Under the pieces are notes generated by a model that was given only the letters and a program-made list of their open reading frames with translations, did not search any database and had not been told where the DNA came from. Below, in pieces: positions 13,787-44,708 of a stretch of 64,000 bases of DNA. Numbering within the stretch: position 1 is the first letter of the stretch; each line of letters opens with the position of its first letter. Source of the DNA: Natrinema salifodinae (GTDB taxonomy: Archaea; Halobacteriota; Halobacteria; Halobacteriales; Natrialbaceae); contig NZ_FOIS01000002.1 in the NCBI RefSeq assembly GCF_900110455.1, positions 62,001-126,000 on the forward strand, read 5' to 3'. Position numbers and translations under genes: made by a program.

Positions 13787-13787
13787 A

Positions 13788-28842: not shown

Positions 28843-29044
28843 CAACCCACTCGTCGCCGTTGTTCTGCTGTAGGAAATCGCTGATGTCACTCATCTCGAT
28901 CGCGGCTTCGAAGGCTTCCCGGTCGTCGCGCATCGCGTCGATCACGTCGTCACCAAGTCGCTCTCGCGCTTCCTGCTCGGATAAGTCGCCGCGCCGGTAC
29001 TTTTCGCACGTAGCAATTTTCTCAGCGTCACTCATCTCCGTCAT
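28823..29044 (-). CDS. small hypothetical protein, possibly antitoxin-like
   Basis: 73 residues. The middle (EKIATCEKYRRGDLSEQEARERLGDDVIDAMRDDREAFEAAIE) is a helical pattern similar to the small UPF0175-like antitoxins, where a short helix-turn-helix follows a YREG-type segment; the resemblance is loose. An alternative start is the ATG coding MSDAEKI three codons later. It is 39 bases downstream of the acidic protein gene in the same direction, so both may share a transcript. No matching toxin was recognised next to it. Confidence 0.6.
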   Translation of the reverse strand: MTEMSDAEKIATCEKYRRGDLSEQEARERLGDDVIDAMRDDREAFEAAIEMSDISDFLQQNNGDEWVVNVYER

Positions 29045-29083
29045 GGTAATTGGTCACTCGCGGCGGTTGCGGTGTGGTGTGCG

Positions 29084-29578: not shown

Positions 29579-29649
29579 TCGGGTCGTATTACCTCACTGA
29601 CTGGGATTCTCCCACCCCGTGGGACAGAATAGTGATGTGATGATGGCGG

Positions 29650-30394
29650 TTACTGGGGGATCTCCTGCAGGGCTTCTTCAACTCGCTCGTCGCCTGCGGT
29701 CGCGTCGAGATACCACTCGCGTCGATCGTCGTCCTGGTGGATTCGGGACAGGGTCTGCCGTGTCGTGTTGAGTCCCGTCGCAGCCTGCCTGTATGACTCG
29801 CCATCCTCAATGTCCTGCAGCGCGTCGCGGATCTCTAAGTAACCGTCCTCGCCCGGGTCCTCTGGATCGATGACTGGTCTGAGGTAGCCCTGCTCGTTCC
29901 ATTCGAATCCGATCGGGACCTCCCCTAGCCATTTCCCTTCCCCTCTCGCTCGCTTCACTCCGGAGTTGACGCGGCTGATGAGCTTCCGTCGCTCTTCTTC
30001 GGCAACAGCTGCGCTGATGTCTGCGATGAGCTTCCCGGTCCCGTCGGGTCGTACGGTGTCGGTCCACCCGTTAGTGATGTTGACAATCGTCTCGTTGTCG
30101 GCTGCAGTCTCGAAGAACTCTTGGTAGATGCTGCCGAGTCTCGCTAACCGGCTGATCTCCCAAACGATGACGCGGTCGTACTCGCCCGCGTCGATCGCGT
30201 CGGTGAGTTCGCGGAATTGTTCGCGTTCCGGATCGCTCCCCGATTGTGCGAGGTCTACGTACCAGTCGATCCCTCCGGGGTCGATGTCGTTATTTTCGGC
30301 CGATGTCGTCTCGCTGGTGCTCGGAGGTTTGTTTGTCGGTGCTCGCGCGGATGTACGCGGCGGCGTTTTCGCCCGTTGTCGGCCCTTCTCTCAC
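29650..30394 (-). pseudogene. serine recombinase (resolvase type), frameshifted
   Basis: Start GTG at 30394. The first frame gives AAAYIRASTDKQTSEHQRDDI, with the catalytic serine of the resolvase family (RAST), then hits a stop at 30290. In another frame the protein carries on: ENNDIDPGGIDWYVDLAQSGSDPEREQF, then REFEELTDAI-type and VIVWEISRLARLG, RKLISRV and a C-terminal DNA-binding part with a helix-turn-helix like end (SYRQAATGLNTTRQTLSRI). The break is at about 30297-30302, where a few codons between DDI and ENNDI are also missing. The length (745 bases) is not a multiple of three. The enzyme would have been a small resolvase/invertase; it is probably inactive. Confidence 0.8.
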
Positions 30395-30410
30395 ACAGGG
30401 TAACCTAACA

Positions 30411-30488
30411 GTCAAATACGTATAAGTAAGGAAAGTCGTGTACAGGGTCGTCGCAACCTGTACACGGTCAGGTGACCGTGTACGGGGG
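30411..30488 (-). promoter_or_regulatory. 20-base-phased GTAC palindrome array and promoter before the serine recombinase
   Basis: Three GTAC cores at 30440, 30460 and 30480 are spaced exactly 20 bases, and a near match (GTAT) sits at 30420. They form two overlapping perfect palindromes: CGTGTACAGG (30437-30446) with CCTGTACACG (30457-30466), and TACACGGTCA (30461-30470) with TGACCGTGTA (30473-30482). Between the array and the GTG start is a TATA-like ttacttatacgtatt on the minus strand (about 30416-30430). This is either a resolution site or an operator. Confidence 0.65.
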
Positions 30489-30555
30489 ATTGTGTAGTGA
30501 TAGTCGAAGTGCTGCAAGGAGTATTCGTGCCTGTCTCCGAGTGCTAAATATTCGC

Positions 30556-30894
30556 TCACATCACAGTGTCCACGGATTCATCAAACTGCTCAAACCAGTT
30601 GCGTGCCTTATCCGGAATGTCGTCAATTGAGTAATGCCCCTTGTTCGCTAATTCTAACGCCTGAACTGCCTCACCTTTGGTGACGCATTCGAAACACAGA
30701 TCCTCAACAGCTTTCTCTCGCGCTCTATGTGTACTCATCGCCTGGTCATCCCTGAGGGCTTGTCGGAATCGGAGCCAGAATATCAAGTGACGGTCCGCTG
30801 GGAGTCTCTCCAGGGTCAGGTCAAGACGGGCAGGTACGAACGGGAATGACGAGACAAGTGCGAGTACACGGAGGTAGGCGCGCCGTCGTAACAT
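30556..30894 (-). CDS. hypothetical protein
   Basis: 112 residues from ATG 30894; a later ATG at 30738 would leave a 60-residue protein. The composition looks like a real gene: basic N-terminus (LRRRAYLRVLALVSSF), then helical segments (DLTLERLPADRHLIFWLRFRQAL) and KAVEDLCFECVTKGEAVQALELANKGHYSI. A minus-strand element like gtaagtaagc about 25 bases before the first ATG could be a TATA box for a leaderless start. It precedes the recombinase operator in the same direction. I do not recognise it. Confidence 0.55.
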   Translation of the reverse strand: MLRRRAYLRVLALVSSFPFVPARLDLTLERLPADRHLIFWLRFRQALRDDQAMSTHRAREKAVEDLCFECVTKGEAVQALELANKGHYSIDDIPDKARNWFEQFDESVDTVM

Positions 30895-31174
30895 GCTGTC
30901 GACACAGACGTTTGCTTACTTACCTCTTCCCCTGCTACCTGTTCATGTGTTTTTCTTGCTGTCCTCGAAAACTACTAACGAGGTATTAGTTTCTGGTGGC
31001 GTGAGCGGTGCGGTCGAGGTGGGCCCGCGGCGGTCTCGTTGACAATTTCGCAACGACCGAACACCATACGCGACCGCGACTGGGCTCATCCGCCCCACTC
31101 TTCGGGACCGACCGAGTCGTGACTGGTTATGCGGGCAGTCGGATCGGGACCTCATCCCGAACGGTTGGACCATC

Positions 31175-31726
31175 TCATATGGCAGCGTCCTCGTCAATCG
31201 CCGAATTATCTGCCGCACACCACGCGGTGAGCGGGGCTTGGTCCGAGTGGTGTGCGGCCTGCTCACGGTCTGAGGGATGGGCCGGGTCCTTTGTCTGATC
31301 TACTTTCCGCTGTTCGATTGATGGATCGGCTGTGTCGCCAGTGAGCGTTTGCTGCTTGTCCCGCTCCGGTGGTCCATTGTATTGCGCTTCCGGTCGGAGT
31401 AATCGCGTCTCCGGATCTCGCACTGCCCCATCTTGGATCTTGTATTGCCCTGTAGCATCTGCCCCGATGATCTCGTCATCTTCTACTTGATTGAAGATGA
31501 ACAGCCACAGGTCCTCGGTCGTCTGCCACTTCTCGTCATCGGAGTCTCGAACGATGAGATCGTGATGCCTCAGGTAATGTTTCAGTCTCTCCGACAGTCC
31601 ACTCTTGCTCCATCTCCACGCGATTCCGGGGGGCGCGAGGTACTGCGTGAGTTCATTCCAGTTTGTGCGGATCGTTGCTTTCTCACCGCGGGTGAGGTTC
31701 GAGTCGATCGGCGTAGGAGCTGCCAT
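31175..31726 (-). CDS. hypothetical protein, possible winged-helix N-terminus
   Basis: 183 residues. The first 90 residues are ordered-looking and contain WNELTQYLAPPGIAWRWSKSGLSERLKHYLRHHDLIV, which could be a winged-helix fold; the rest is polar and probably disordered (PERDKQQTLTGDTADPSIEQRKVDQTKD). Its ATG overlaps the TAA of the upstream gene (TAATG at 31724-31728), so the two are coupled. A perfect CCGCACACCAC/GTGGTGTGCGG inverted repeat lies within its 3' end (about 31213-31256) and may act as a terminator or operator. Function unknown. Confidence 0.6.
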   Translation of the reverse strand: MAAPTPIDSNLTRGEKATIRTNWNELTQYLAPPGIAWRWSKSGLSERLKHYLRHHDLIVRDSDDEKWQTTEDLWLFIFNQVEDDEIIGADATGQYKIQDGAVRDPETRLLRPEAQYNGPPERDKQQTLTGDTADPSIEQRKVDQTKDPAHPSDREQAAHHSDQAPLTAWCAADNSAIDEDAAI

Positions 31727-31971
31727 TACACCTCACCACCACTCGGTAGCAAGCGGTACGCCTCGGTCTCGATGAGGTCTTCCTCAATGGTCATCGATTT
31801 GTAGGCGAACACGAGGCGACGCGGGCGGTACATCCCATCAGCCGAGTAGGACCGGACAGCATCCCGACTACGCGTTACCTCAGCATATGATCGGACCTGT
31901 CCTTGTTCATCAGCGGACCCAGCATTGTTACCGCTGCTATCGGCAGCATTCGGTCTCTTATTGCTTTTCAT
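31726..31971 (-). CDS. small hypothetical protein, first gene of a two-gene unit
   Basis: 81 residues from ATG 31971. The N-terminal 30 residues are polar and low in complexity (SNKRPNAADSSGNNAGSADEQGQ), the rest is ordered (RRLVFAYKSMTIEEDLIETEAYRLLPSGGE). The start is chosen because a clear TATA element (ttttaaata on the minus strand, 31994-32002) lies about 28 bases upstream and GGTG immediately before the ATG; an upstream in-frame ATG at 32073 would place the TATA inside the gene. It overlaps the next gene by one base. No family recognised. Confidence 0.6.
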   Translation of the reverse strand: MKSNKRPNAADSSGNNAGSADEQGQVRSYAEVTRSRDAVRSYSADGMYRPRRLVFAYKSMTIEEDLIETEAYRLLPSGGEV

Positions 31972-32247
31972 CGCACCTGGGGTAAATTCGTGGTTATTTA
32001 AAACACCTTGGCCTCTGAGCACTTGAGCAGCCAAGAAAAGCGACAAATCCACCCAAATTACCCCTGACGGCATTCACTAGCCCCTCAAAAATTCAGAATC
32101 AATGGGTTACACCGCGCGCGCCAGAACAAATCTGCGTCTAAACGGGCCACCAGAACAATGATCTTTCCAAAACTCGCCACCACTGATACCACGGATATCA
32201 CACCCCCAGCCGATGATGTAATTAGACGCGGGTGAGTGGGGAGAACC

Positions 32248-32466
32248 GTGCCACGAGACACTGACGATGACAGTGGAGCTGGTGACGATGCAGAGGCGTT
32301 CAGCGATTTAGACGAGGTCCTTGACAATGATGGGAATCTTGATGAGAGTCGTATTGAGCAGAGCGACGGGAGGACCGTGGATTCTCCGCACTATGACAGA
32401 GACGACCAAAACAGGTTAGCTAACAGTAGTGTCGATTCCCGATACGAAAGCGATCGGGCTGATTAG
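32248..32466 (+). CDS. small acidic protein, paralogue of 29084-29578
   Basis: 72 residues from GTG 32248, preceded at 6 bases by a GGGGAG ribosome site; a GTG at 32236 is less likely. The block EAFSDLDEVLDNDGNLDESRIEQSDGRT matches the N-terminal block of the longer acidic protein at 29084 (about two thirds identical by eye), including the following DSPHYDRDDQN. The rest of the longer protein is absent. So it is a duplicated, shortened and inverted copy, 2.7 kb away. Function unknown; both may be DNA-mimic or structural proteins. Confidence 0.6.
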   Translation: MPRDTDDDSGAGDDAEAFSDLDEVLDNDGNLDESRIEQSDGRTVDSPHYDRDDQNRLANSSVDSRYESDRAD

Positions 32467-32569
32467 CTAGGACAACGACAGCAGCGACGACGAGTAACCG
32501 ACCGTGATGCAGGGCAGCTTCTCGCTGGGTATGGTCACTGACCGCCACTGAAGCTACTCAAGATCATAA

Positions 32570-33076
32570 TCACTCATCTCCAATCTGCTGAACCAGTTGA
32601 TCACGGGTAGCCTCAACTATTTCTTGGTCCAATTCTTCGTGATCGGAGGTGCAGATGAAATCGACCACCTCTCGCTCGTGAATTTGATCCGTTACATGAC
32701 GGCGGGTCAGGGTCGATTCTTCAGCTGGGACACGTACAACTGAGTGAATTTCAAGTCTTCCGAGGGCATGATACCGGACTCTGAGTAGGACTGTCCAGAC
32801 TGGCGGTGGATAGCATGCGACTAGATCAGCTTTTTCGCTGGCATCACTGACATCGATGTATGTCGTTGATTCGTCCCAGTCCCCAAATCCGTCAGCGACT
32901 CGTGTTTGTATCTCCTCCCATGTCCATCGGAATGATGAATTTAAGTCTGTAATGGGAACGAGACAGGGGTGATCGTCTGATTCGGTGGGTGGATCTACTG
33001 GAAAAGCCTCGATATCTAATAACTCGATGATCGTCTCTGCTAATTGGTCGATCGCATCCTTATCACTCACCCGCAT
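32570..33076 (-). CDS. hypothetical protein
   Basis: 168 residues from ATG 33076. The N-terminus is helical (DKDAIDQLAETIIELLDIEAF); the middle alternates short beta strands and helices (CLVPITDLNSSFRWTWEEIQTRVADGFGDWDESTTYIDVSD). There are no membrane segments and no motif known to me. It stands alone between the small acidic gene and a long gene-poor region, and could be cargo of the element or part of a module with the acidic gene. Confidence 0.6.
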   Translation of the reverse strand: MRVSDKDAIDQLAETIIELLDIEAFPVDPPTESDDHPCLVPITDLNSSFRWTWEEIQTRVADGFGDWDESTTYIDVSDASEKADLVACYPPPVWTVLLRVRYHALGRLEIHSVVRVPAEESTLTRRHVTDQIHEREVVDFICTSDHEELDQEIVEATRDQLVQQIGDE

Positions 33077-34151
33077 TAGTCGAACACCGAATTCTCCTGT
33101 AACCGTATTCTGTTAGCGCATGATGCCCATTGATGGGAATGACTGAGGGATTTCTGTGTCATCTTTGCTGGAACCTGTGTCGACACGACTGGTGTCCTAC
33201 TTATATATTTCCGATGTGCTGGCTATGATTGTCCTGACGGATGTGTCGCCAGTCATTTCCATCAAGTCCTGTACCAATGATAGTCAGAGTTTGTGAAGAA
33301 AATCCACCACAGAATGTGGTAGCCCGCACAGCCACCACACTGTGCGGGATCAGGGGGCCGTTCACGCGTGGACGGCAGTGTCGACAGACGCGCCTGCTGA
33401 CTTAAGTCTTAGTAAAGTGAGCGCTCCGAGTTTCCGGTCGAGATCTCTGCAAATCTCTGTTTATACCTGGGTTAGTCAACTCCTCTATCACTGCGATCTT
33501 CTAATTTCGAACAAATACTTCTCTGATATGTCTGATTTCTTAGAGGCGCGGAAAGCATATAAGCTACAATTCGGTTCGAGTGTCTTGAAGCACGCCGACG
33601 CCGGAAGCATCCAATTAGAAAGCAACAGGATGTGCAACCGGGGCTAACTCTGTGGTACCGTAATCTAGGTACCGTTGTAGAAGCCGTTGCGCGCGGCACC
33701 GGCGCGCGTAGCCGAGCGTTGAGCGTGTGTCATGGAGCAAGCAACCCATGTCAGCACGCCAAAACTCGATTAGTCCCTACTGTCAAAGAAGCAGCGGGTC
33801 AAAGAAACATCCCCGAGAAACAGTACAGCCCGGAGTACGAATCAAGAGTGGATCCTTCAGAAACACCGTCTCCCTTATCGAGGGATCACGTCTGTTCTCC
33901 GACTGTAGCTGGAGAGTTAGCTCACCGAATTTAATTTTTGCAGCATCACTTTCCGCGAGTGTACTCCTGATGGAAGTGCGGGTGCTAATTCACCTAGCTG
34001 AACGCTGTAACAGAAGGACTAGAGGGAGCACCCACCCCTGCACTTGCCTCGCCCTACTACTTACTGTTGACAACTACACAACAAACATAACAAATAGGTT
34101 ACTGATCTGTAGTGGGGTTGGATACACCTTCGCTGGAGGGGGGATGGCAGA
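33077..34151. other. 1.07 kb gene-poor region
   Basis: No gene with supporting composition is seen. It contains a strong TATA-like tatata (33202-33207), two adjacent hairpins (33306-33348) and a G/C-rich dyad (about 33688-33711). Short open frames here are interrupted and unlike proteins. The right end holds GGAGG (34134-34139), the ribosome site for the gene at 34152. Confidence 0.45.
33306..33348 (+). other. two adjacent hairpins, candidate small RNA or terminator
   Basis: ACCACA-GAA-TGTGGT (33306-33320) is followed two bases later by CCCGCACAG (33323-33331), 8-base loop, CTGTGCGGG (33340-33348). Both stems are perfect. They lie about 100 bases downstream of the TATA-like element at 33202 in a region without genes, so they could be part of a short structured transcript. 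Confidence 0.35.
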
Positions 34152-35099
34152 ATGACTGAGAGGGAGCGTCTGAACCTTCGTGTCCCTCCTAAGGCGAAGG
34201 AAGCCTTCGACAATGCGCTAATCGATAAATTCGGAAAAAAGACGCCTTACGGAGGGGTTGAACTCGAACGTGAACTTCGAACAGTGCTTGACGAAGGATC
34301 TCTCGCAGAACTACGAGAGACCGTCGAGGAAGTGGCCGAGATATTCGGAAAGGAAAATCGAGAAGAAAAAACTCGGTCACTAAACGGTTCAGGATCCGCT
34401 CTCGTACAGTACCGAATTGCAGAGGATGTTCGTACGAGAATCATGAATCTGGCTGAAAATTCCGATTACCGGTCAGCCGGTCGGTTCGTTGGTGACATCA
34501 TGATGACTTATGCTTTGGAAGATGGCGTGGTTGGTCGTCTCAAGGATAAACTTGAACGAGTAAAGAAAGCTGCTGAGCGAGAGGTAGACTCGACTACTGG
34601 TCCTAAAGAGCGCCGAACCAACACAATTGTTGAAGAACTGGCTGGAAAGAGCCAATTTGACCTCTCCGATTTTGACCAAGCCGTTGATGAGGAGGCTCGT
34701 GGAATCGGTTCTGGCAAACATGCTCGAAAAGAATACCTTCCACGGGTTCTCAATGAGTTAGGGTATACGTGGTCACCCACTGGTGAAGAGATATTCGTAG
34801 ATCCGAGCGCTGCTGACATTCCAGATACCCGTGATCCAACCACAAAGCCATATCATCTGATGGACGAGGAGGATAAGCATCTGGCACTGAAGTTTGAGGC
34901 CTACCGTAACGCGGTCTTGTTGGGAAGAAAAATATTCACTGTAAGCGATGGAAAAGAGACACTCGACGGAAAACCTGCTCGAAACACCGTTAGCCGCTTT
35001 GAGATCCCGTTCTGCAGCGAGATATGTGCCGGTGCTATGCCTCACACTATACCACGTCAACGACTGCCCGCCCATGTTAATACCGGCGTCAGCGCATAA
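34152..35099 (+). CDS. ribbon-helix-helix-like element protein with a chimeric C-terminus
   Basis: 315 residues from ATG 34152 (GGAGG ten bases upstream). The N-terminus looks like a ribbon-helix-helix DNA-binding protein (ERLNLRVPPKAKEAFDNALIDKFG), and a second similar segment occurs at about residues 85-120 (VQYRIAEDVRTRIMNLAENSDYRSAGRFVGDIMM). A C-terminal winged-like part follows (KHARKEYLPRVLNELGYTW). From about residue 279 the frame reads through the antisense strand of a tyrosine integrase remnant, so the last 35 residues are not native: the gene's true 3' end has been replaced. It may still make a functional DNA-binding protein used in element maintenance. Confidence 0.65.
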   Translation: MTERERLNLRVPPKAKEAFDNALIDKFGKKTPYGGVELERELRTVLDEGSLAELRETVEEVAEIFGKENREEKTRSLNGSGSALVQYRIAEDVRTRIMNLAENSDYRSAGRFVGDIMMTYALEDGVVGRLKDKLERVKKAAEREVDSTTGPKERRTNTIVEELAGKSQFDLSDFDQAVDEEARGIGSGKHARKEYLPRVLNELGYTWSPTGEEIFVDPSAADIPDTRDPTTKPYHLMDEEDKHLALKFEAYRNAVLLGRKIFTVSDGKETLDGKPARNTVSRFEIPFCSEICAGAMPHTIPRQRLPAHVNTGVSA

Positions 35100-35427
35100 T
35101 CGCCGGAGTAGGCGGGCGAGCGACCGAGACGAATACGGCGTTCCCTCCCGTGTCAACCAGAGGTGGTCGCTGTCGTCGTACGCGGAGTTCTCAGCGTGCT
35201 CGTCCAATCAATGCTTGAGTGCATCCGTGGTGCGACTCGTTAGGCTCGTACGCCAATTATCGTGTTCTTCGATGAATCCTCGCGGGGATACGGAACAACT
35301 TGTTATCAAAGTCAACCCATTCCGGGCGGGCGCGAGAGACTTCGACCGGGCGGAGCGCGGCGTCAAGGCTCGTCAGTACGATCGTGGTTTCGCGCCAACT
35401 CTCTGTTGCGAGCGTGGCTTCGCGCAT
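34990..35427 (-). pseudogene. tyrosine integrase remnant with two frameshifts and a stop
   Basis: From about 35427 the minus strand encodes an XerC/D-type catalytic domain: TIVLTSLDAALRPVEVSRA (with catalytic Arg), IPA, then after a one-base loss DSSKNT, after a second one-base loss NWRTSLTSRTTDALKH, a TGA (35208-35210, expected Trp), then LDEHAENSAYDDSDHLWLTREG, SLARLLRRLCADAGI, and the box with His-Arg (WYSVRHSTGTYLA). The sequence then breaks off near 34990 before the catalytic Tyr. It is unrelated in detail to the intact integrase at 45875, so it records an older element. Confidence 0.8.
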
Positions 35428-35717
35428 GCGGCTCTTTCGCGGCGCGTCAAATAGTCTCGGGGAGAGTCGTCACCACTCGACGAAAATCGTTGGTCGTGGT
35501 CCCACTCACACCCGGGGTAATTGGCTTCGAGGTACCGGTAGTACCGAGTGAGTGCTTTCGGTTTTCCCTTTCGGGGAAGCTGGCGGAGGTAAACTACAAA
35601 GCGCGGACGTAGCTATCAGTGTTGCCGAGGCCGGGAAGTTTGTGGCAGGATCTGCGAAGGTGGCCCTTGACAGTGTGTTGTAGGATATCAGAATCTAGAG
35701 ACCGATTAGGTCTCCTG

Positions 35718-37019
35718 TTAGTCCCCTACTGATTCGCCTGTGAAGTCCTCGGCTCTCTCTTTACCAATATTTACAACCTCTTCCACTAGAGTTTCTGGAT
35801 CAGCATCATAGAGGTCCTGTGGCGTTTCGATACCGAGATCGTGTAGCTGATCAATGTTGTTTTCCGTAATCCCGTTGAATTGTGTTAGCTCGTCTCCATA
35901 CTGGTCCTGCATCAGTGCGGTTCGGTCGGTGTATTCGCCATACAGATCTACAATAGAGCTTCTGAAGGATTCCCGTGTATTCTCTCGCTTTTCTGGACCG
36001 AGGTTTCCAGGGTCGTAGCCGTCGTCACGTCGCTCATACTCTTCAACGATGGAAAGATCAAAAGTAACTTTAGGACGTTGCTTAAACTTCAGTTCCAATT
36101 CTATCGCGTCTGGTGATTCGGTGTCCTGGAATAGGGCCCTGATCGAATTGAAGTAGAAGCCACTATCCAAGCAGTCCTGCACGAATTGATTCTCCCTCAG
36201 GCTGCTGCCTTTGAATACTGCATCTGTGATGCCTCGGAGTTCCTCATCCAGTTCTTCCTCAATCTCTTCTTCCTCCTCAAACTCAGTTTCCTCTTCCTCA
36301 AGTACGCCAGCACTCTCTCCGCTTTGTTTGATACCTAGCTCAAGCACCTGCTCGAATCTCCAGTCTCCTGGTGTATCACGTAGGAATTTGTTGAACATCT
36401 CCACACTGTCTTCTGCGGGGATCGTTTCTAGGTTGAAGTTGACTCTCTTGATTCCAGGTTTTCTCTCGCTGAGCCTCTTTGACTCCCAATCGTCAAAGAA
36501 GTCGCTGGCGGCATTGAACTCATCAGCGTACCGGTATTCCTGAGTTCCTTGCCAGACCCCGTCTTCGTCTGTCTGTGTGAGGGAAACAGTAATTGAACGC
36601 GTTTGTGTGTTCTGGAGAGGTCGTCGAGAAGGACTACGGTCTTCATACTGTAGATTGATTTCAAATCCATCGTCCGTGTTAACAACACTTTGCACTTCCA
36701 GATCTTTGTTCCCATTATACTGGTAGCCTTTCCCCCTGTTCCTTTCCAAATCTTGTATGAGGTCTTCTTCGTCCGCTTCGCTCTCGAAAATGAACGCTGT
36801 GGCCTTCTTCCTCTTGTCCTTTTCCAGCACGTCTTCTTTCAGCGAATTCGTACGGTCATACCCGATGTACATCCGGCGTGTGAGGTCGGCTAGGTCTTCT
36901 GTTTCGCCGGAATGTACTAGAACGTGCGAATGCCTGCGGAAGAATGCTTGTGCTTTATCACGCCCGTACTTTTCCTCGACAATGGCCTTGTAGTCCTGAT
37001 CGCTGGGGTATTCGTCCAT
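35718..37019 (-). CDS. 433-residue protein of a three-gene nuclease operon, unknown family
   Basis: 433 residues, third gene of the operon and 2 bases after the nuclease gene. The N-terminal 70 residues have KAQAFFRRHSHVLVHSGETEDLADLTRRMYIGYD; then come beta-rich repeats (SITVSLTQTDEDGVWQGTQEYRYADE and KRVNFNLETIPAEDSVEMF), an acidic Glu run (about residues 243-262), and another related strand-rich domain (IELELKFKQRPKVTFDLSIVEEY). The last 50 residues resemble a helix-hairpin-helix pair (ENNIDQLHDLGIETPQDLYDADPETLVEEVVNIGKERAED), which would bind DNA. No catalytic motif is seen. I do not recognise the family. Confidence 0.75.
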   Translation of the reverse strand: MDEYPSDQDYKAIVEEKYGRDKAQAFFRRHSHVLVHSGETEDLADLTRRMYIGYDRTNSLKEDVLEKDKRKKATAFIFESEADEEDLIQDLERNRGKGYQYNGNKDLEVQSVVNTDDGFEINLQYEDRSPSRRPLQNTQTRSITVSLTQTDEDGVWQGTQEYRYADEFNAASDFFDDWESKRLSERKPGIKRVNFNLETIPAEDSVEMFNKFLRDTPGDWRFEQVLELGIKQSGESAGVLEEEETEFEEEEEIEEELDEELRGITDAVFKGSSLRENQFVQDCLDSGFYFNSIRALFQDTESPDAIELELKFKQRPKVTFDLSIVEEYERRDDGYDPGNLGPEKRENTRESFRSSIVDLYGEYTDRTALMQDQYGDELTQFNGITENNIDQLHDLGIETPQDLYDADPETLVEEVVNIGKERAEDFTGESVGD

Positions 37020-37021
37020 AG

Positions 37022-37990
37022 TTAGTCCTCCCTCAGGTCGTCTGCGTATGACTTGTAATCTACCTGCGGCAGTTGGTGGAACTGGAAAGGTGTATCTGGT
37101 GGCAGAATACTTCCCTCAAGTTTCTCAACTGCCCGCTCATACTGCTCGTCTTCCTCCTCACCGGCTTCTATATACGAGTAAATCCAAACCTCATCGGCGT
37201 CGAGCAATTCGTTGTCGCGTAGCGAATAGTACAGGAATTCCAGACTATCTTTGTCTGTACCAGCGGAATTGAACACAATGCTGACATCCCTCGTCTCAAC
37301 GTCCTTATTGTTCAGTTTAGTCTTCTGAAGCTTTGCGTAGACGAAGTCAGAGAACAGGTATTCAAAAGAGATAGTACTCCTTCGGTCAGGAGCGGCCCTT
37401 GGCTCTTGTAGTGACGGATAGTAGAAGTTGAGATCTCCCTCGATAATGTCCTCGCCGTTGGTGTGCGTTTCCTGAATCTCTTTGTACTTTCTTTGTATGC
37501 TGGCGAGACGGTTGAGTTCCCTGTTGCCGAGGATTAGGACGTGGCTGGGACCTCCACCTTTCTTGACTCTGCAGCTTTCCACGTATGCTTGGAATTTTTC
37601 ATGGTCGTATTCGTCGTCGTTAGTGAAGGCTCCGAGAATAGCTGTGTCCCTTCGCCTGTTTTCGTAGTCGTTCAGTTTCTCCTCAAAGTCTTGGGATCTG
37701 GTGGAGCACTCCAGAGCTGTTCGGACCTGTTTTGCATCAGCTTGTAGTGAACTTGGACCCCAACTCCCCCATTGCTTTGACTTGGATTCTACGATGACAC
37801 CCCTCTCGTCCGCGAGATACGAGTCTTTGTAGGCCATATAGCCGTCAATCCCATGCTGGTCTTTGTCATGTTTTCGAGACTTACAGTCAATGTCTCTTCC
37901 ACCGCCGATGTACTCCCAGCCGAACTCTTTCAGCAGGGCGATCAATCTCTTCTCGGCCCTATCACCAGTGTTGCGGACTTCCTCACCCAT
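37022..37990 (-). CDS. PD-(D/E)xK-like nuclease subunit of a three-gene operon
   Basis: 322 residues. The first 75 residues carry the pattern of a PD-(D/E)xK endonuclease fold: an early helix with Glu13 (GDRAEKRLIALL), Asp49 in HGIDGYMAY, and ESK (Glu68, Lys70) on the next strand (GVIVESKSK). The layout recalls the nuclease subunit of the GapS4-type system, from memory and unverified. The rest is alpha/beta with ILGAFTNDDEYD and HVLILGNRELNRLASI. The gene overlaps the first gene of the operon by 8 bases and is followed after 2 bases by the third. It is probably the cutting component of a defence system. Confidence 0.78.
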   Translation of the reverse strand: MGEEVRNTGDRAEKRLIALLKEFGWEYIGGGRDIDCKSRKHDKDQHGIDGYMAYKDSYLADERGVIVESKSKQWGSWGPSSLQADAKQVRTALECSTRSQDFEEKLNDYENRRRDTAILGAFTNDDEYDHEKFQAYVESCRVKKGGGPSHVLILGNRELNRLASIQRKYKEIQETHTNGEDIIEGDLNFYYPSLQEPRAAPDRRSTISFEYLFSDFVYAKLQKTKLNNKDVETRDVSIVFNSAGTDKDSLEFLYYSLRDNELLDADEVWIYSYIEAGEEEDEQYERAVEKLEGSILPPDTPFQFHQLPQVDYKSYADDLRED

Positions 37991-38726
37991 TGTATGCCTC
38001 CCGAGTTATTTCCTTTACTTCAGACCACAGCGGTTCCTCGGATTCCAGGCTGGAGTACAGTCGAACGGTACCACTCTGGAAGAATCCGAAAGTGGCCTCT
38101 TGTGAAGGTGTCTTGATGTTCGCCCGCAGGATGGTAATGTCGCTGCTATGTGAGTCTATTAGTTCTCGGATACGGATATCCCCAACATCTTTGATAGTGT
38201 ACGTCCCCGACAGTCCGCCTTCCGCTTCGAAGTTCTGGATTCGTATGCTGGAAACATCGATAGACCATTCCCTGTCCTGCAAATTGGCATACAGTCTGCC
38301 TATGGGGAGCTGTGTCTCGGTAATTGGGAAGCTGAAGCCGCTGGCTTCACCAATCCTTGAAATCAACTTGCTGGTGTCGCTCTGGTCGGAAAATATGGAA
38401 AGCAAGCCAATGTCAAAATCAAGTTGAAACGGTATCAGTAGTGTCTGCTCTATCTCTCTGTCCACCACTTGCTGTGTAGCTACATCGAAGGTTTCTGTCT
38501 TGACAGGCGTTTTCTCCACAAAGTAGCCGTCAATCGCCATATCACCTGATTCGGAGATATTGAATCCGTATGATCGACTCTCGTCAAACTGGAAGTTCTC
38601 AATCCCCTCAAAGGCTGCCTGGTAATTTTTTTCGCCTGGCTCTAGTATCGCCAGGTTGGCATTGAAAGGTGATTCGGTGATCACGATGGTGAGCAGTAGC
38701 GACGCCTCCTGTATAATTCTTGTCAT
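37983..38726 (-). CDS. 247-residue protein, first gene of a three-gene nuclease operon, unknown family
   Basis: 247 residues from ATG 38726; frames further upstream run antisense to the adjacent HNH gene remnant and are not used. The protein is rich in beta strands (ESPFNANLAILEPGEKNYQ, YGFNISESGDMAIDGYFVE, LLIPFQLDFDIGLLSIFS, IQNFEAEGGLSGTYTIKDVG, EATFGFFQSGTVRLYSSL), with no signal, membrane helix or catalytic motif. It may be a sensor or DNA-binding subunit. Its 3' end overlaps the nuclease gene by 8 bases. It begins only 15 bases from the broken edge of the GmrSD-like remnant on the opposite strand. Confidence 0.7.
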   Translation of the reverse strand: MTRIIQEASLLLTIVITESPFNANLAILEPGEKNYQAAFEGIENFQFDESRSYGFNISESGDMAIDGYFVEKTPVKTETFDVATQQVVDREIEQTLLIPFQLDFDIGLLSIFSDQSDTSKLISRIGEASGFSFPITETQLPIGRLYANLQDREWSIDVSSIRIQNFEAEGGLSGTYTIKDVGDIRIRELIDSHSSDITILRANIKTPSQEATFGFFQSGTVRLYSSLESEEPLWSEVKEITREAYNG

Positions 38727-38740
38727 CAAGGCCGGTGTAG

Positions 38741-39316
38741 GGGCTCCACGGTACGTTCTCCGGGAGTGCTGACTCGGTGTTGAACCGAATTCGGAAGGTA
38801 CTGAAAGAAGAACCGGGCGAGACATTCCCGGTGGCAGCAATCGAGACAGAGATGGCTGATCTTGGGAAGGTGACTGGTTTCAACGAGGAGATGATCGAAA
38901 ACGTTTTGGAGTATACGAAAGGTGGAAGTCGGACGTTCCTCACGCTGACGCTGCTCTACGACCAGATCGACTTCGGGAGTATCCAGTACCATCAGGATCA
39001 CATCTTCCCGAGTTCGCTGCTGGACGAAGACTACCTTCTTGATAATGGGTTCGATCGGGACAAAGCTAAGGCGTTCGATGCGCAGGCAGATCGCCTTGCC
39101 AATCTCCAGCTTCTGACTGGACGGGAGAACGAGGCAAAGCAGGATACACCGTTTGAGGAGTGGCTTGAGAGTCAGGACGAGTCGTTTTACGACCGCCACC
39201 TCATCCCGACTGACCCTGAGACACATCGGATAGAGAACTTTGATAGCTTCCTCGAACAGCGCTCTGAACTCATCAGAGATGAACTCCAGTCGGTCCTCGG
39301 TCCCGTAGAGCACTGA
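38741..39316 (+). pseudogene. C-terminal (HNH) part of a GmrSD-like DUF262/DUF1524 protein, 5' truncated
   Basis: The open frame begins after a TAG at 38738-38740 and reads GTFSGSADSVLNRIRKVL before the first possible start (GTG 38777, 179 residues). It contains the DUF1524-type HNH nuclease site QDHIFPSSLL and its downstream partner ANLQLLTGRENEAK. Full-length proteins of this class have about 400 more N-terminal residues with a DUF262 (ParB-like) domain, absent here. So the gene was cut off at its 5' side, exactly where the three-gene operon begins. The HNH domain itself looks intact and could still be made from the GTG. Confidence 0.8.
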
Positions 39317-39792
39317 ACTGCGCCGGGATACAAGTGGAGCCCTAGGAACAGTAGATTCCCCTGACGATTAGCTGATACGTGCTGTGTATGCAGCAGGTCC
39401 GCTGAAAACGTCATCAAATTAGGCCCAATCTGCTAAAACTCATAACACCCCTCATTTCCGCTCCAAGATGTCTTACCAGCCCCTCTGTGGCCCGATTTCA
39501 CCGAATTAGTGTTTTAGAATTCTGTTTTGGTTCACGGATGTCGGGTGCGCGGATTCCAAATGAGAATCGCACACTGCCTAGCGGTTTTGCTAATTTGTTA
39601 GTTTGAGCGCATTCCAAATGAGGTTATCAAATAAAATATGGGTCACAGCCGCTCCGAACGCGCACACCATGCCAGTGTTGTGTGTAGGTGACAGGGGGTG
39701 TGTGAACTTTCACACTAGGCGAACCCCAGTAGATTCCGCTATTCCGTCAGACACCTGGAAAAGATGCTCGGGTTGCAAGATGAAAGTAGCAG
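39317..39792. other. 476-base intergenic region with a short direct repeat
   Basis: No gene supported. ATTCCAAATGAG occurs at 39553-39564 and again at 39611-39622, each preceded by gcgc-type sequence, 58 bases apart. A GCACACCA word (about 39660) matches the operator motif seen near 13.8 kb. Confidence 0.4.
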
Positions 39793-41151
39793 CTAAGATA
39801 ACTCGATAATCCCATCGATCCTACTGTACTTATTGTCCAAGATCTCACGTCCCTTCTCCCTATCTATACCAGCAGTCTCAAGCAATACCGCAAGCACAAC
39901 AATCCGTACAAGGATCTCAGCCCGAGCAATATCTGTCGTCGAGAGCTCTTCAGGAAGGCTGTGAGCAATGTTATGCCGGACACTCTTAATAGTGCTAAGA
40001 TTCGAGTCGATATCATATGACTCAGGGAACATCTCTTCATGACGGCTAGTGATATCCAATAGTCGGTCCCCGATAGATGGCTCATTCACAATACTTCGGA
40101 ACAAGTCTCTCGCCCTCTCCCAAACAGCCACCTTCGGCATCTGCTCCAGCGTAGATTCCCGGAAACGCCTGTACACACTCTTACTCATCGTCTTCTGGCG
40201 ATCAGGGAAAGCTCTCCGATGATAGGCCTCAAGAGCAAACATCATCGACATAAATTGAGTGTTAACGAACATACTGTCGTTGTATCTGGTGCCGAAGTAG
40301 TTGTCATGCAGACGGCCCACTTTACTTGAACTCTCCAACCACTGACCTACTACCTTCTTAAACTCGACATCTTGAAGAGTGAAGTTCATCTGCAACGAGT
40401 TCGCATCATCCTGTTCACGGTAATACGGCACATCCCAGTGAGCCGAGTGCTTGGAATCATGATGGCCAAACCGGGCAGAGTATAGGTTTAGGAAGGTGGG
40501 GAACACAGCCTCTCCGACCCCAAGTGTAACGAGGTTCTGTAACGGTCTGACATAATCTGAAAGGTATTCGCTGTACGTCAAAGGCTCATCAGGGTAAACG
40601 GTGAAATAGACCCTGCCAAGTCTCCCATCGAAAGCAGAGGACATGTCCTCATGCATGTTTAGAATGATGTCAGCATCGTCCGTGGAGAGTGATTCAGTGA
40701 CAGCAGGGCCAACATCAATATCGTGGTCGCCAGGTGTGGTAACACTTCTAATTCCGGTCCATGTGGCGAGGTTGTTGAATGAGAAAGAGCATTCCCAGTA
40801 CTTTGAATCAGTATCAACTAATCCTCTCCTGATGACGGTCCCCTTCTCATAGGACTCTGTGGTGAATGAAATATCCCTTGTGCTCATGCTGTCGCCAGAA
40901 CACATGCAGTTGAGGATGGTAACGTATTCTCCCTCTGTCGTCACGCCAAAGATGTTGACTGGGCCGTCCTCAGTCTCAGCATTGTCATCATGTCTCTCGA
41001 ACATTCTGTAGAAGCTGCCGAGTAGTTCAAGTTCGACACCGTGTACCGGCGAATAAGTCAGTGTGCCTGCTACAGCCTCGTCAGGGACAAGTTCGTCCTC
41101 TTCATCCATTTCCTCCAACCACCACTTGCCCCCGACGTCGATACTGTCCAT
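39793..41151 (-). CDS. ApeA-like HEPN anti-phage protein
   Basis: 452 residues. The N-terminal domain has the pattern of ApeA NTD (GGKWWLEE, then VAGTLTYSPVHGVELELLGSFY and VNIFGVTTEGEYVTILNC, within residues 8-85). The C-terminal domain is helical and ends with a HEPN RNase motif R-x4-H (RHNIAH, Arg392 and His397). ApeA proteins act alone as abortive-infection type defence, in which the HEPN domain cleaves RNA after infection is sensed. The gene is isolated, transcribed leftwards, and has lower GC than the host core genes. Confidence 0.8.
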   Translation of the reverse strand: MDSIDVGGKWWLEEMDEEDELVPDEAVAGTLTYSPVHGVELELLGSFYRMFERHDDNAETEDGPVNIFGVTTEGEYVTILNCMCSGDSMSTRDISFTTESYEKGTVIRRGLVDTDSKYWECSFSFNNLATWTGIRSVTTPGDHDIDVGPAVTESLSTDDADIILNMHEDMSSAFDGRLGRVYFTVYPDEPLTYSEYLSDYVRPLQNLVTLGVGEAVFPTFLNLYSARFGHHDSKHSAHWDVPYYREQDDANSLQMNFTLQDVEFKKVVGQWLESSSKVGRLHDNYFGTRYNDSMFVNTQFMSMMFALEAYHRRAFPDRQKTMSKSVYRRFRESTLEQMPKVAVWERARDLFRSIVNEPSIGDRLLDITSRHEEMFPESYDIDSNLSTIKSVRHNIAHSLPEELSTTDIARAEILVRIVVLAVLLETAGIDREKGREILDNKYSRIDGIIELS

Positions 41152-41263
41152 ATTATCTTCTTCTGAGGATGGTTCTAAAAACCCCGTGGAGAAATACCAG
41201 AAACCACGAATCCAGATTTTCGGTGAAAAGGCCTTACTGATCGGACTTAGCTGAGATCAGGTA

Positions 41264-41449
41264 TTAGTGATCATACTCCTCAAGGGTTTCAACCTCGATA
41301 TCGTCCAGTCCTAAGGCGTCCTCCAGGCGATCAAGAGAGACCTACGTGGTCACGGTGTCGTCGCTGACATGGACCTCGTCCCGCATCAAGCTCTTGACAA
41401 CGGCCAGTTTCTCTACAGTGGCGCCAGGCCCTGTAGCGGTTGAAGTCAT
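41264..41449 (-). pseudogene. small ORF with an in-frame TAG
   Basis: ATG 41449 to TAA 41264-41266 would give a 61-residue acidic protein, but a TAG (41342-41344) interrupts it after DDTVTT; the frame resumes as VSLDRLEDALGLDDIEVETLEEYDH. Both sides have normal protein composition (ATVEKLAVVKSLMRDEVHVSDD before the stop). Probably a decayed small regulator or antitoxin-like gene. A single base error in the sequence would give the same picture. Confidence 0.45.
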
Positions 41450-41592
41450 CTCTTGAGGCTTTTGTGAAAGACATCGTTGGTGAGTCAGAGGACGATTCGA
41501 CAATTTTCCAAAGAGCGTACTTGTAACTCAGAAATACGGAACAGTCGGTCGAGATATTGATTTGGCGACTGAGAGCAAGGTATAGAGATGTT

Positions 41593-42042
41593 TTACTCTC
41601 TCGGAATGTGGGGTAAGCGTTTTTGAATGACGACATTCACGCTATCATGTCCGTCGGTTGGAGTCAACTCCACCACTTCATAGGTTTCCTCGTCGTAATC
41701 CAGTAGTCGAAGCAAATAGTGCGTGCGAGGATAACATTTCGATTCCTTACCTTCTGAATCGCGGAACAAGATGTGAAACGGTTTTCCAGTACCATCGGGA
41801 TTCCTGTCTACATCGTAGTCGAAATCGACTGTTATAGCCCTATGGCTCTCCTCAAAGAGTCCTCGGTTATTGAGAAAGAACTCATAGGACCACGCGTCGA
41901 TCTCGAACAAGGCGACTAAGAACCAGTCCAACGGTACCAAGTGGTGAAATCGATCAATGCCGAACTGAGTTTGTTCAGTCTCAACAGGTTCGGTGTAGTG
42001 ATGCTCCGTCGTGAACGGTGCGATCGTATCAGGTGGGCCCAT
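41593..42042 (-). CDS. hypothetical protein
   Basis: 149 residues from the ATG at 42042 (an ATG two codons earlier at 42048 is equally possible). The protein is mixed alpha/beta with many aromatic residues (FGIDRFHHLVPLDWFLVALFEIDAWSYEFF) and a strand-rich second half (AITVDFDYDVDRNPDGTGKPFHILF, YEVVELTPTDGHDSVNVVIQ). There are no membrane helices and no motif known to me. The phased GTAC array (42112-42292) begins about 65 bases upstream, so it may control this gene. Confidence 0.65.
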   Translation of the reverse strand: MGPPDTIAPFTTEHHYTEPVETEQTQFGIDRFHHLVPLDWFLVALFEIDAWSYEFFLNNRGLFEESHRAITVDFDYDVDRNPDGTGKPFHILFRDSEGKESKCYPRTHYLLRLLDYDEETYEVVELTPTDGHDSVNVVIQKRLPHIPRE

Positions 42043-42111
42043 AATCAAGCGGATGTACCCCTGCTAAATCAGCGTTGAGAAGGATCTCATCATCAGCTTG
42101 AAAATGTAACT

Positions 42112-42292
42112 GTACCACGGTATGGAGGTGTGGAACGCTCTCGTGTACCTGACTCCTGATCCAGGATCATGGTACTAGAGCAAAGTTCTGTGTCGTGGTA
42201 CAGGATCTTGGTACACTATTCTAGTACTGATCCAAGTACCACGACTTCGTCATAGTTACACGGTACACTACCTTGTTCCTGTTCCGCAGTAC
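42112..42292. repeat. array of nine GTAC-centred motifs, mostly at multiples of 13 bases
   Basis: GTAC occurs at 42112, 42145, 42172, 42198, 42211, 42224, 42236, 42263 and 42289. The steps from the second on are 27, 26, 13, 13, 12, 27 and 26. Two 13-mers, AGGATCATGGTAC (42163-42175) and AGGATCTTGGTAC (42202-42214), differ at one base and are 39 bases apart. A 10-base inverted repeat GTCGTGGTAC (42192-42201) and GTACCACGAC (42236-42245) frames the centre. It fills the intergenic space between two divergent genes and looks like an iteron set or multi-site operator. Confidence 0.6.
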
Positions 42293-42483
42293 CGTTATTC
42301 ACTGGTATTACACACTATTGCAAGCATAGAACTTCAGGAGGAGTTTCTCTGCCCACACTTAGGGCAGGGATCCGCACAACACGGCTAGTTCCGATAATAA
42401 GTCACAGTGGTACCGACCCGAGCATCATTCACATCGTGATCCAATGTCGAATACATTAACAATCATAGATCTAATTAGTAATT

Positions 42484-43398
42484 ATGTCTGACATCGTCAC
42501 GTATGATCCGGAAGATAGAATTGTTTACTTTACAGGAAAAGACGAACCGAAGGAAATTCATCGAGATGTCTCTTCAGCCGAATTCAAGGAGATAGAGAAA
42601 ATCGAATCATACTCCCATGAGTGTATGGCTACTGCCGATCGGCTTCTCCATATACTTGGAAGAGGTGCTATATTCGGCCCCAAAGCGCGAGAAGACCTGC
42701 AACTGTTGAAAGAGGACGTGATCGAACTCTATTCAGAATTTCCGTCGTATAAGTCCCTGGTTGAGGAATCGGAGTATGCGCGAGTACGCGGATATGATGG
42801 CGTCATCTACAAGGTCAAACGGCCGCTGGAAAACGTCTTCGAGTGCATCGGGATTGTCGCGGATCTGATAACCAACGGTCAGCTGATAAAACGATATTAT
42901 CTCGACGGGCACGATCCGTACCATATCCAACACCTGGCCATAAACATCTGTGCCGCACTGGAGCACCTGGGTATCGTTGCTGTCAATCGTCTTGCCCCTG
43001 AAAACGGTGGCATTGATGCCTCCAACCCGCAGTATAACGTGACGAAGGTATACAAGCAGATCATTGAGGAGGGGCTTCACGAGCCAATAAGCGATGACGA
43101 GGATCTAATTAACGACGTTAGTATGTCTGAGGTTGAAAGACTGAAAGAAATGCGTGATCTCATTGCACACAAATCGCTCTATCAGAATATCCCCTCTCAA
43201 GCAATTCCAGAGGGTCTGAAAGAACAGGCTTACCTCTATGATGCTTCTGACACCAAGGATCTTACACTAATAGCACTGAAACTTCAGATGGTTGCACTAG
43301 TAGTGCTCACGAATTATGTATATGACCACGTCAAAACGGGTATTGAACCGTACGTGGAAGCTATTTACCAGAGTAAAGAGAATTCGAAAAATAGCTGA
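42484..43398 (+). CDS. protein with HEPN-like RxxxxH motif
   Basis: 304 residues from ATG 42484; a TATA-like element (tacattaaca, about 42452-42461) lies 25-30 bases upstream, fitting a leaderless start. The protein is mostly helical (SAEFKEIEKIESYSHECMATADRLLHIL; EYARVRGYDGVIYKVKRPLENVFECIGIVADLI). In the C-terminal third EMRDLIAHKS gives the R-x4-H pattern (Arg224, His229) typical of HEPN ribonucleases and HEPN antitoxin-toxin pairs, followed by a long helix. There is no obvious nucleotidyltransferase partner next to it. Together with the ApeA-like gene it makes two HEPN-type proteins within 4 kb. Confidence 0.65.
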   Translation: MSDIVTYDPEDRIVYFTGKDEPKEIHRDVSSAEFKEIEKIESYSHECMATADRLLHILGRGAIFGPKAREDLQLLKEDVIELYSEFPSYKSLVEESEYARVRGYDGVIYKVKRPLENVFECIGIVADLITNGQLIKRYYLDGHDPYHIQHLAINICAALEHLGIVAVNRLAPENGGIDASNPQYNVTKVYKQIIEEGLHEPISDDEDLINDVSMSEVERLKEMRDLIAHKSLYQNIPSQAIPEGLKEQAYLYDASDTKDLTLIALKLQMVALVVLTNYVYDHVKTGIEPYVEAIYQSKENSKNS

Positions 43399-43399
43399 G

Positions 43400-44299
43400 T
43401 CAGTCAAGCAGGTTCACCTGTAGGTCGGCTTCTTTTGCTAGGTTTTCCAACTCTCGCTGCACACGGTCCAGCTTACGATTCAGGTTCCGTCTCTGTTCTT
43501 TGTAGAATCGTTTATCTGATTCCTCGTATTTTGGTGCGTACCCATTCATCGCTCGTCCGAAATATACCTCGTTATCCTCTACTTCTCTCAACGCTCGGAA
43601 TACTTTGCTAACTGCTTCTTGTACATCTTCGTCGCTGTAGAGATGGGTGTTTTCCCGAAGTACTTCTTTCAACGATTCAATATTTAACAGGTGGTAGTTG
43701 GGAGGGTTTTCTGATCGGATTGAGAACCGATTCTCTTGACCATTGTAGATGTCGTCGAACCGGTTAATCTCCATTTCTAATTGCCTGACGGCTTGTTGTC
43801 TACGATCGTGTTCCACGAACAGTGACTCCATTTGTTCGCGGCTCATCGGTTCTTTCCGATCGTTGATTCGTCGGTATACCGCTGCGTCTCCGGTCAGTAC
43901 AGGTTTTCTTTTGGCTTCCGGGATTCGAACTGGGAGAATGATCCGGTCTGTGTTGTCGCTGGGTGATTCAATCGGGCTAGGGATTTCGATGTTTACCAGT
44001 GGACGAGTATTCTGAATCAACCGGGTTACTGACTGTTTGACCTCATGGCTTGGTGGTTCGAATGGTGAAGGATTTCCGTCGTCATCTACTCCGAATACGA
44101 TGATTCCGCCGTTAGCGTTCGCAAATGCGGTGATTTCTTTTTCCAGTTTTCGTTGCCATTCTTTTTGAACGGGTTTGATTTCATCTGGTGGGTGGAGAGT
44201 CTCTTTGTATTCGAGGTACTGGTTTTCGCTATGTTGGGAGAGTGATGTGACGGTGTCCCAAGTCCATGCGTTGACGTCAGTGGTGAATGGAAGTTCCAT
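43400..44299 (-). CDS. AlbA_2 (Schlafen-like) domain protein
   Basis: 299 residues from ATG 44299; a minus-strand TATA-like ttttaaaac about 30 bases upstream supports this start over longer ones. The AlbA_2 domain is clear: LEYKE (29-33), EITAFANANGGIIVFGVDDDG (55-75), and VYRRINDRKEPMSREQM after a metal/nucleotide-binding strand. The C-terminal 120 residues form a long coiled coil (YKEQRRNLNRKLDRVQRELENLAKEADLQ). AlbA_2 proteins range from DNA-binding regulators to Schlafen-type nucleases; in a defence island the latter is plausible. It converges with the HEPN-like gene, with stops 1 base apart. Confidence 0.82.
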   Translation of the reverse strand: MELPFTTDVNAWTWDTVTSLSQHSENQYLEYKETLHPPDEIKPVQKEWQRKLEKEITAFANANGGIIVFGVDDDGNPSPFEPPSHEVKQSVTRLIQNTRPLVNIEIPSPIESPSDNTDRIILPVRIPEAKRKPVLTGDAAVYRRINDRKEPMSREQMESLFVEHDRRQQAVRQLEMEINRFDDIYNGQENRFSIRSENPPNYHLLNIESLKEVLRENTHLYSDEDVQEAVSKVFRALREVEDNEVYFGRAMNGYAPKYEESDKRFYKEQRRNLNRKLDRVQRELENLAKEADLQVNLLD

Positions 44300-44401
44300 A
44301 TGAGGTGTCAGAGATGTTCTGAGTTTTAAAAGTTTGACAAACTGATTTGCCATCCAATGATATGGCTTCTCATGATGACCTGCTATAAGCACAGATCAGT
44401 G

Positions 44402-44632
44402 TCATCCCCGCAGAAGAGACACTCCATCCTCCAAATCATCAATTAGGCCTAGAAGCAGGGCATCCAGATGGACAAGTGATTTAACCCACAGGTTCCGCAA
44501 CGACTCTTTGTGTACTTTTCTTTCTCTTGACCCCATATGTGCATATCCATCTAAGAAGCGTCCGTTCTTCGACGGTTTTGCTAAATTGGTCGTAGAACCG
44601 CCTTCCAGATTCTTAATAAGTCCCTGTTCGTC
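44402..44632 (-). pseudogene. 3' remnant of an unidentified gene
   Basis: A frame without a proper start (TAA just upstream at about 44633) encodes protein-like text: ITFNASGLEDEQGLIKNLEGG, GRFLDGYAHMGSRERK, LRNLWVKSLVHLDALLLGLIDDLEDG, then TGA at 44402-44404. An internal ATG at 44536 could give a 44-residue product. The composition suggests the end of a larger, deleted gene. Confidence 0.4.
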
Positions 44633-44708
44633 CTCCAGACCACTTGCATTGAAAGTGATGCTATATTAGCGTTGGGTGGCTGTTTCACGGCTTACTGATG
44701 TGGCACGA

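What the first reader, a model, noticed from the sequence alone, without database searches (positions are those of the whole stretch)
35718..38726. Compact three-gene operon with a PD-(D/E)xK-like nuclease and two unrecognised partners
Seen: three minus-strand genes in tight order (8-base overlap, then 2-base gap): a beta-rich 247 aa protein, a 322 aa protein with Glu13, Asp49 and Glu68-x-Lys70 in PD-(D/E)xK spacing, and a 433 aa protein with a helix-hairpin-helix-like end. There is no methylase or ATPase in the operon. Known: nucleases with small accessory subunits are typical of recently found anti-phage systems; the nuclease resembles a GapS4-type subunit only by memory. Inference: this is a defence module in which the partners sense or recruit the target; I do not know an existing system with this gene set.
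Basis: partly seen in the sequence, partly recalled or inferred. Interest (0 to 1): 0.8.

Follow-up and report, generated by a model that had tools for sequence, protein, structure and literature searches.

The report
Archaeal 3HP defence operon with DNA clamp
Three overlapping genes in a salt-loving archaeon are a distant, previously unrecognised relative of the bacterial "3HP" anti-phage system; one protein is predicted to be a DNA-cutting enzyme and another to have the fold of the ring-shaped DNA clamp RdgC, which suggests how this so far unexplained defence works.

Summary
The three genes are real, tightly arranged and conserved: homologous triples were found in 9 of 391 haloarchaeal genomes. 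All three proteins hit the three PHROG families that also hold the proteins of the bacterial anti-phage system 3HP; a Vibrio phage record labels such genes Rst_3HP Hp1/Hp2/Hp3, and 3HP protects E. coli against P1 (PMC9122126). Archaeal and bacterial profiles match subunit by subunit at 98.6-99.3%. Differences: order Hp3-Hp1-Hp2, a C-terminal helix-hairpin-helix (HHH) on most archaeal Hp2 proteins, and scores too weak for PADLOC's models. B is a PD-(D/E)xK nuclease: D49 and D/E68-x-K70 are kept in 86 of 86 archaeal and 3HP proteins, and its model resembles FokI, XisH and HamA; E13 is not conserved. New here: the confident model of A has the fold of the DNA-encircling ring protein RdgC, whose chains are the only PDB hits at E<=1e-3. 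B is also related to GapS4a, linking 3HP with GAPS4. Most likely mechanism (inferred): an RdgC-like clamp and an HHH-bearing partner place a nuclease on invading DNA.

The parts
37983..38726 (-). Gene A = Hp3-like subunit (247 aa; probable true start GTG at 38684, 233 aa). Predicted RdgC/RexA/Iml3-type DNA-clamp fold.
   Evidence: phrog_5850 E 2.6e-6 (57); hhalign vs bacterial Hp3 98.6%, E 1e-15 (119); model pLDDT 86 (131); Foldseek RdgC 3.7e-7 (135); VIA Z 11.2 (136)
37022..37990 (-). Gene B = Hp1/GapS4a-like PD-(D/E)xK nuclease (322 aa); D49, E68, K70
   Evidence: phrog_7059 E 2.6e-17; NCBIfam GapS4a E 6e-17, below cut-off; hhalign vs Hp1 99.3%; invariant residues; model and PD-(D/E)xK fold matches
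35718..37019 (-). Gene C = Hp2-like subunit (433 aa; about residues 1-375) with a C-terminal helix-hairpin-helix (about 376-424)
   Evidence: phrog_6531 E 2e-11; hhalign vs bacterial Hp2 98.9%; HHH_5
12624..47078 (.). Integrative element that carries the operon: 30-bp direct repeat of the tRNA-Lys 3' end, low G+C, integrase at 45875-47176

Best explanation
The operon is an archaeal, divergent branch of the three-gene anti-phage system 3HP. Gene B is the effector, a PD-(D/E)xK endonuclease. Gene A is an RdgC-like protein that probably dimerises into a ring or horseshoe around double-stranded DNA. Gene C is a partner that in most haloarchaea has gained a helix-hairpin-helix for non-specific or structure-specific DNA binding. 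Proposed mechanism: A and C load on, or recognise, a state typical of invading DNA (free ends, replication or recombination intermediates) and hold B there; B then cuts the invader's DNA, or all DNA in an abortive response. Shown here: homology of all three subunits to 3HP, obligate co-occurrence, conserved nuclease residues, the predicted fold of A. Inferred: dimer or ring formation, complex formation, trigger, and cleavage. Taken from the literature: anti-phage activity of bacterial 3HP.
For: Same PHROG families as 3HP for all three proteins; record-level Rst_3HP labels; profile-profile 99.3/98.9/98.6% with cross-pair controls at or below 1%; 3HP protects against P1 (58, PMC9122126); every locus long enough to tell has all three genes: 68 of 68 viral contigs and 9 of 9 archaeal genomes; D and D/E-x-K invariant in 86/86 (92); nuclease fold matches; RdgC fold of A in two libraries; RdgC, RexA and Iml3-Chl4 share a DNA-binding fold, and RexA is itself a phage-exclusion protein (139, PMC11077077); defence-rich integrative element.
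Against: No functional data for the archaeal operon. RdgC likeness of A is by predicted fold only; sequence profiles do not detect it (1%), and no member of A15 hit an RdgC family in Pfam. The model of B has moderate confidence (pLDDT 74.7) and no Foldseek hit at E<=1e-3. C was not modelled. No tool here can predict a complex.
Confidence: 0.6

Rival explanations
1. Abortive variant: B is a DNA-shredding toxin kept silent by A and C, which release it when infection is sensed; A's RdgC fold serves to sense DNA ends or to inhibit, not to target the invader.
For: Obligate three-gene operon with tight or overlapping junctions; RexA, a fold relative of A, belongs to an exclusion system.
Against: No toxicity data; nothing in the sequence separates toxin control from targeting.
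Confidence: 0.25
2. DNA repair or recombination module of mobile elements (RdgC-like protein plus nuclease), with any anti-viral effect secondary.
For: RdgC is a recombination protein; phage RdgC proteins are the nearest folds in BFVD; carriage on phages and plasmids.
Against: Bacterial homologue was shown to protect against P1; rare and patchy (9 of 391 genomes); sits in a defence-rich element.
Confidence: 0.1
3. A GAPS4 system with an extra gene rather than 3HP.
For: B matches NCBIfam GapS4a E 6e-17 (7) and GapS4a profiles at 98.1% (119).
Against: Far below the GapS4a cut-off (61.8 vs 270 bits); C does not match GapS4b (0.2%) while it matches Hp2 (98.9%); A has no GAPS4 counterpart; GapS4a proteins carry S-x-K where B has E-x-K.
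Confidence: 0.05

Closest known systems
3HP (Rst_3HP; Rousset et al. 2022, PMC9122126)
   Same: Three homologous proteins always together; catalytic D and D/E-x-K; on mobile elements
   Different: Gene order Hp3-Hp1-Hp2 instead of Hp1-Hp2-Hp3; HHH tail on most archaeal Hp2; about 7-21% identity to bacterial members; missed by PADLOC models for Hp2 and Hp3; separate archaeal branch
GAPS4 (GapS4a/GapS4b)
   Same: GapS4a-related nuclease; partner gene directly downstream
   Different: Two genes only; no RdgC-like subunit; S-x-K motif; GapS4b not detectably related to C (weakly to bacterial Hp2, 89%)
RdgC (2OWL, 2OWY), lambda RexA, Iml3/CENP-L
   Same: Overall fold of A (Z 11.2 over 216 residues for RdgC, about 8-9 for Iml3/CENP-L); RexA by literature
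   Different: No sequence similarity detectable; tied to a nuclease operon; shorter (233-247 vs 303 aa)
Hachiman HamA, Shedu, XisH, FokI nuclease domains
   Same: PD-(D/E)xK core of B (Z 6.8-9.3)
   Different: Different partners (helicase in Hachiman, none in Shedu; own knowledge); no sequence similarity

Membership tests
3HP (Rst_3HP) | Homologues of Hp1, Hp2 and Hp3 all present | tested here: met
   phrog_7059/6531/5850 hits; hhalign 99.3/98.9/98.6% (119)
3HP (Rst_3HP) | The three genes form one operon | tested here: met
   same strand, adjacent or overlapping in all 9 archaeal loci
3HP (Rst_3HP) | Gene order Hp1-Hp2-Hp3 (usual, in my view not defining) | tested here: not met
   Order Hp3-Hp1-Hp2 in all archaeal loci; Hp1-Hp2-Hp3 in all bacterial ones
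3HP (Rst_3HP) | Recognition by curated PADLOC models (a detection rule, not a biological one) | tested here: not met
   Hp1 E 0.002 only, no Hp2 or Hp3 hit: filed as a divergent variant
3HP (Rst_3HP) | Protection against phage | not testable with these tools
   Shown for the E. coli system against P1 (58)
GAPS4 | GapS4a at or above the curated cut-off | tested here: not met
   61.8 vs 270 bits
GAPS4 | GapS4b partner | tested here: not met
   No NCBIfam hit; archaeal C vs GapS4b 0.2% (119)
PD-(D/E)xK nucleases | Conserved D and D/E-x-K on adjacent strands of the core | tested here: met
   86/86 (92); D49 lies between strands 45-48 and 50-56, E68-K70 in strand 61-71 (120)
PD-(D/E)xK nucleases | Core fold | tested here: met
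   XisH Z 9.3, AF1548 9.1, FokI 8.8, HamA 8.3 (127); individual Z values are moderate, but most top matches to the N-terminal half are nucleases of this fold
PD-(D/E)xK nucleases | DNA cleavage | not testable with these tools
   Needs an enzyme assay
RdgC/RexA/Iml3 fold | Overall fold of the base and centre domains | tested here: met
   Foldseek E 3.7e-7 prob 1.00 (135); Z 11.2 (136); viral RdgC top hits
RdgC family proper | Sequence family membership | tested here: not met
   hhalign 1% (119); no RdgC family among Pfam matches of 35 members
RdgC/RexA/Iml3 fold | Ring or horseshoe dimer, DNA binding | not testable with these tools
   No complex prediction available

The most novel reading that the evidence does not exclude
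3HP and its archaeal branch are a clamp-licensed nuclease: an RdgC-like ring (Hp3), alone or as a heterodimer with Hp2 in the manner of Iml3-Chl4, encircles invading DNA and activates a GapS4a-type nuclease. This would be a new way of recognising foreign DNA by topology or by ends, shared by archaea and bacteria and related to GAPS4.
Probability: 0.35. Interest if true: 0.75.

Novelty: new variant of a known kind. Interest (0 to 1): 0.55.

Why it matters
[quoted passage not shown] This work assigns a nuclease fold to one component and an RdgC fold to another, extends the system to archaea with an added DNA-binding tail, and relates it to GAPS4. Together these give a directly testable mechanism: a DNA clamp with a nuclease. 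The archaeal branch also shows that present defence-finding models miss it.

Tried and rejected
GAPS4 membership: rejected on cut-off and partner. RdgC homology by sequence: negative, kept only as a fold relation. Solved structures by sequence for A, B, C, GapS4a and GapS4b: none meaningful. Glu13 as a catalytic residue: rejected, not conserved. The search for published GAPS4 mechanism papers found none held; the Mahata et al. 2024 paper is not held, so GAPS4 statements rest on NCBIfam names and own knowledge. PADLOC Hp1 search of the own genome gave nothing because the model is too distant. Single-sequence scan of viral contigs with Aliarcobacter Hp1 found nothing; the alignment query found 75 loci. 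The C-terminal half of B resembles the RPB5 N-terminal domain (Z up to 8.9), not pursued. The lambda RexA structure did not appear among the fold matches listed; this is no evidence against it.

Full report
What is there. Three minus-strand genes lie at 38726-35718: A (37983-38726), B (37022-37990) and C (35718-37019), with an 8-base overlap and a 2-base gap. The probable start of A is GTG at 38684 (233 aa): several relatives begin there (Halobacterium DL1, Halocatena, G240, N. daqingense), the AlphaFold model has no confident structure before residue 17 (131), and an AATTATAC sequence about 30 bases upstream of that GTG would suit a leaderless haloarchaeal transcript (the promoter reading is inference). 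The operon lies in a low-G+C stretch within a 34 kb element bounded by an exact 30-bp repeat of the tRNA-Lys 3' end (12624 and 47049) with an integrase beside the far repeat (4, 124, 125).

Conservation. Searches with B and then with a B/Hp1 profile found 9 of 391 haloarchaeal genomes (7 of 86 genera), on chromosomes and on plasmids. All nine have the complete triple in the order A-B-C. The three closest relatives are about 80% identical to the window in B; the others are 33-37% or less. Neighbouring genes differ between the loci read in detail, so the triple itself is the conserved unit.

Identity. In PHROGs, B hits phrog_7059 (2.6e-17), C phrog_6531 (2e-11) and A phrog_5850 (2.6e-6). The same three families contain the three adjacent proteins of an Aliarcobacter plasmid, which also hit PADLOC Hp1 (5e-63), Hp2 (5e-30) and Hp3 (6e-8). 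A Vibrio phage record labels its copies Rst_3HP Hp1, Hp2 and Hp3. Rousset et al. [quoted passage not shown] that this is the system later named 3HP follows from the name, the gene number and the DefenseFinder naming, not from an accession check. Profile-profile comparison of archaeal against bacterial sets gives 99.3% (Hp1), 98.9% (Hp2) and 98.6% (Hp3), E from 1e-20 to 1e-15, while the cross-pair controls give 1% or less (first versions in 83, 84). In 75 viral contigs found with the bacterial Hp1 profile, all 68 loci long enough to tell carry Hp1-Hp2-Hp3. The archaeal loci differ in order (Hp3-Hp1-Hp2) and in the HHH tail of C, present in 8 of 9 archaeal Hp2 proteins (absent in L055) and in none of the bacterial tails inspected.

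Relation to GAPS4. B matches NCBIfam GapS4a (6e-17, far below cut-off) and a GapS4a profile at 98.1%; bacterial Hp1 matches it at 97.5% and bacterial Hp2 matches GapS4b at 89% (119). In the maximum-likelihood tree, archaeal B, bacterial Hp1 and GapS4a each form one side of a branch with strong support; the root is unknown. So 3HP and GAPS4 appear to be related systems, GAPS4 lacking the A/Hp3 subunit. I found no statement of this relation in the papers held, but the main GAPS4 paper is not held.

Nuclease. Across 9 archaeal and 77 3HP proteins, D49 and K70 are invariant and position 68 is always E (archaea) or D (3HP); E13 is not conserved. GapS4a has S-x-K at the corresponding place (seen in the sequences; the columns in 92 are shifted by two). 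The model of B (pLDDT 74.7) has the order of the PD-(D/E)xK core, with D49 and E68-x-K70 on neighbouring strands. The best structural matches of its N-terminal half are XisH (Z 9.3), AF1548 (9.1), FokI (8.8), AspBHI (8.6) and HamA of Hachiman (8.3), nucleases or nuclease-fold proteins. Foldseek alone is weak (best 3.4e-3), so the assignment rests on residues plus fold together.

Clamp. The model of A (pLDDT 86) gives only three PDB matches at E<=1e-3, all RdgC (3.7e-7, 6.2e-6, 6.9e-6, probability 1.00). VIA-align gives Z 11.2 and 10.8 over 216 residues for RdgC, then the kinetochore proteins Iml3 and CENP-L at Z 8-9 (136); named RdgC proteins and phage 'exonucleases' lead the viral library as well. 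A Pf-phage record independently calls its Hp3 'RdgC-like exonuclease', and one Hp3 protein had a weak Pfam hit to CENP-L. Sequence profiles do not see this relation. Adams et al. (PMC11077077) state that RdgC, RexA, IML3 and CHL4 share this scaffold, that RdgC and RexA bind DNA non-specifically, and that DNA is thought to pass through the basic central pore of the RdgC ring; RexA is itself part of a phage-exclusion system.

Interpretation. The parts point to a DNA-binding clamp (A), a partner with DNA-binding tail (C) and a nuclease (B). The most economical mechanism is that A and C place or license B on invading DNA. Whether the trigger is a free end, a replication structure or a protein, and whether B cuts only the invader, is not settled by sequence. 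Confidence: homology to 3HP about 0.95, defence function about 0.85, nuclease about 0.85, RdgC fold of A about 0.9, the clamp-licensed nuclease model about 0.35-0.5.

Verdict. A real, conserved, three-gene defence operon; a new archaeal variant of a known but mechanistically unexplained system. The interest lies mainly in the fold assignments and the link to GAPS4, less in the gene set, which is known.

Noticed in passing
12575-12653 and 47049-47078, 45875-47176: Exact 30-bp repeat of the tRNA-Lys 3' end beside a tyrosine integrase: the ends of a 34 kb integrative element.
   Followed up: partly
14250-24767 (-): Four-gene system with helicase (PbeA, HmaA and DrmD-like), DNA methylase (HmaB-like), a 212 aa gene without hit, and ATPase (HmaC-like): Hma-like or mixed modification-dependent defence.
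   Followed up: no
25381-26684 (-): TIR protein (ThsB-like) overlapping an 8xMP octameric membrane protein: probable TIR plus membrane effector pair.
   Followed up: no
26775-27863 (+): DUF4238 protein (8e-45), a family with a member validated against T7 in the same paper that reported 3HP (PMC9122126).
   Followed up: no
38777-39316 (+): C-terminal third of a HEC-05/GmrSD-type protein (PADLOC profile positions 418-594 of 600) directly upstream of the operon: a remnant of an older defence gene.
   Followed up: no
39793-41151 (-), 43400-44392 (-), 44709-45710 (-): ApeA-like HEPN protein (PDC-S58), Schlafen AlbA_2 protein, DUF2971 protein: further defence-type cargo.
   Followed up: no
L036, L037, L039, L009, L010: GapS4a proteins carry S-x-K where 3HP and archaeal B carry D/E-x-K; the missing acid may be supplied by another residue such as the conserved E94.
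   Followed up: partly
37022-37990, residues 154-310 of B: C-terminal half of the B model resembles the N-terminal domain of RNA polymerase subunit RPB5 (Z up to 8.9).
   Followed up: no
L042, L044: 3HP carried by two filamentous Pseudomonas phages with 13 kb genomes, next to the phage repressor and excisionase.
   Followed up: no
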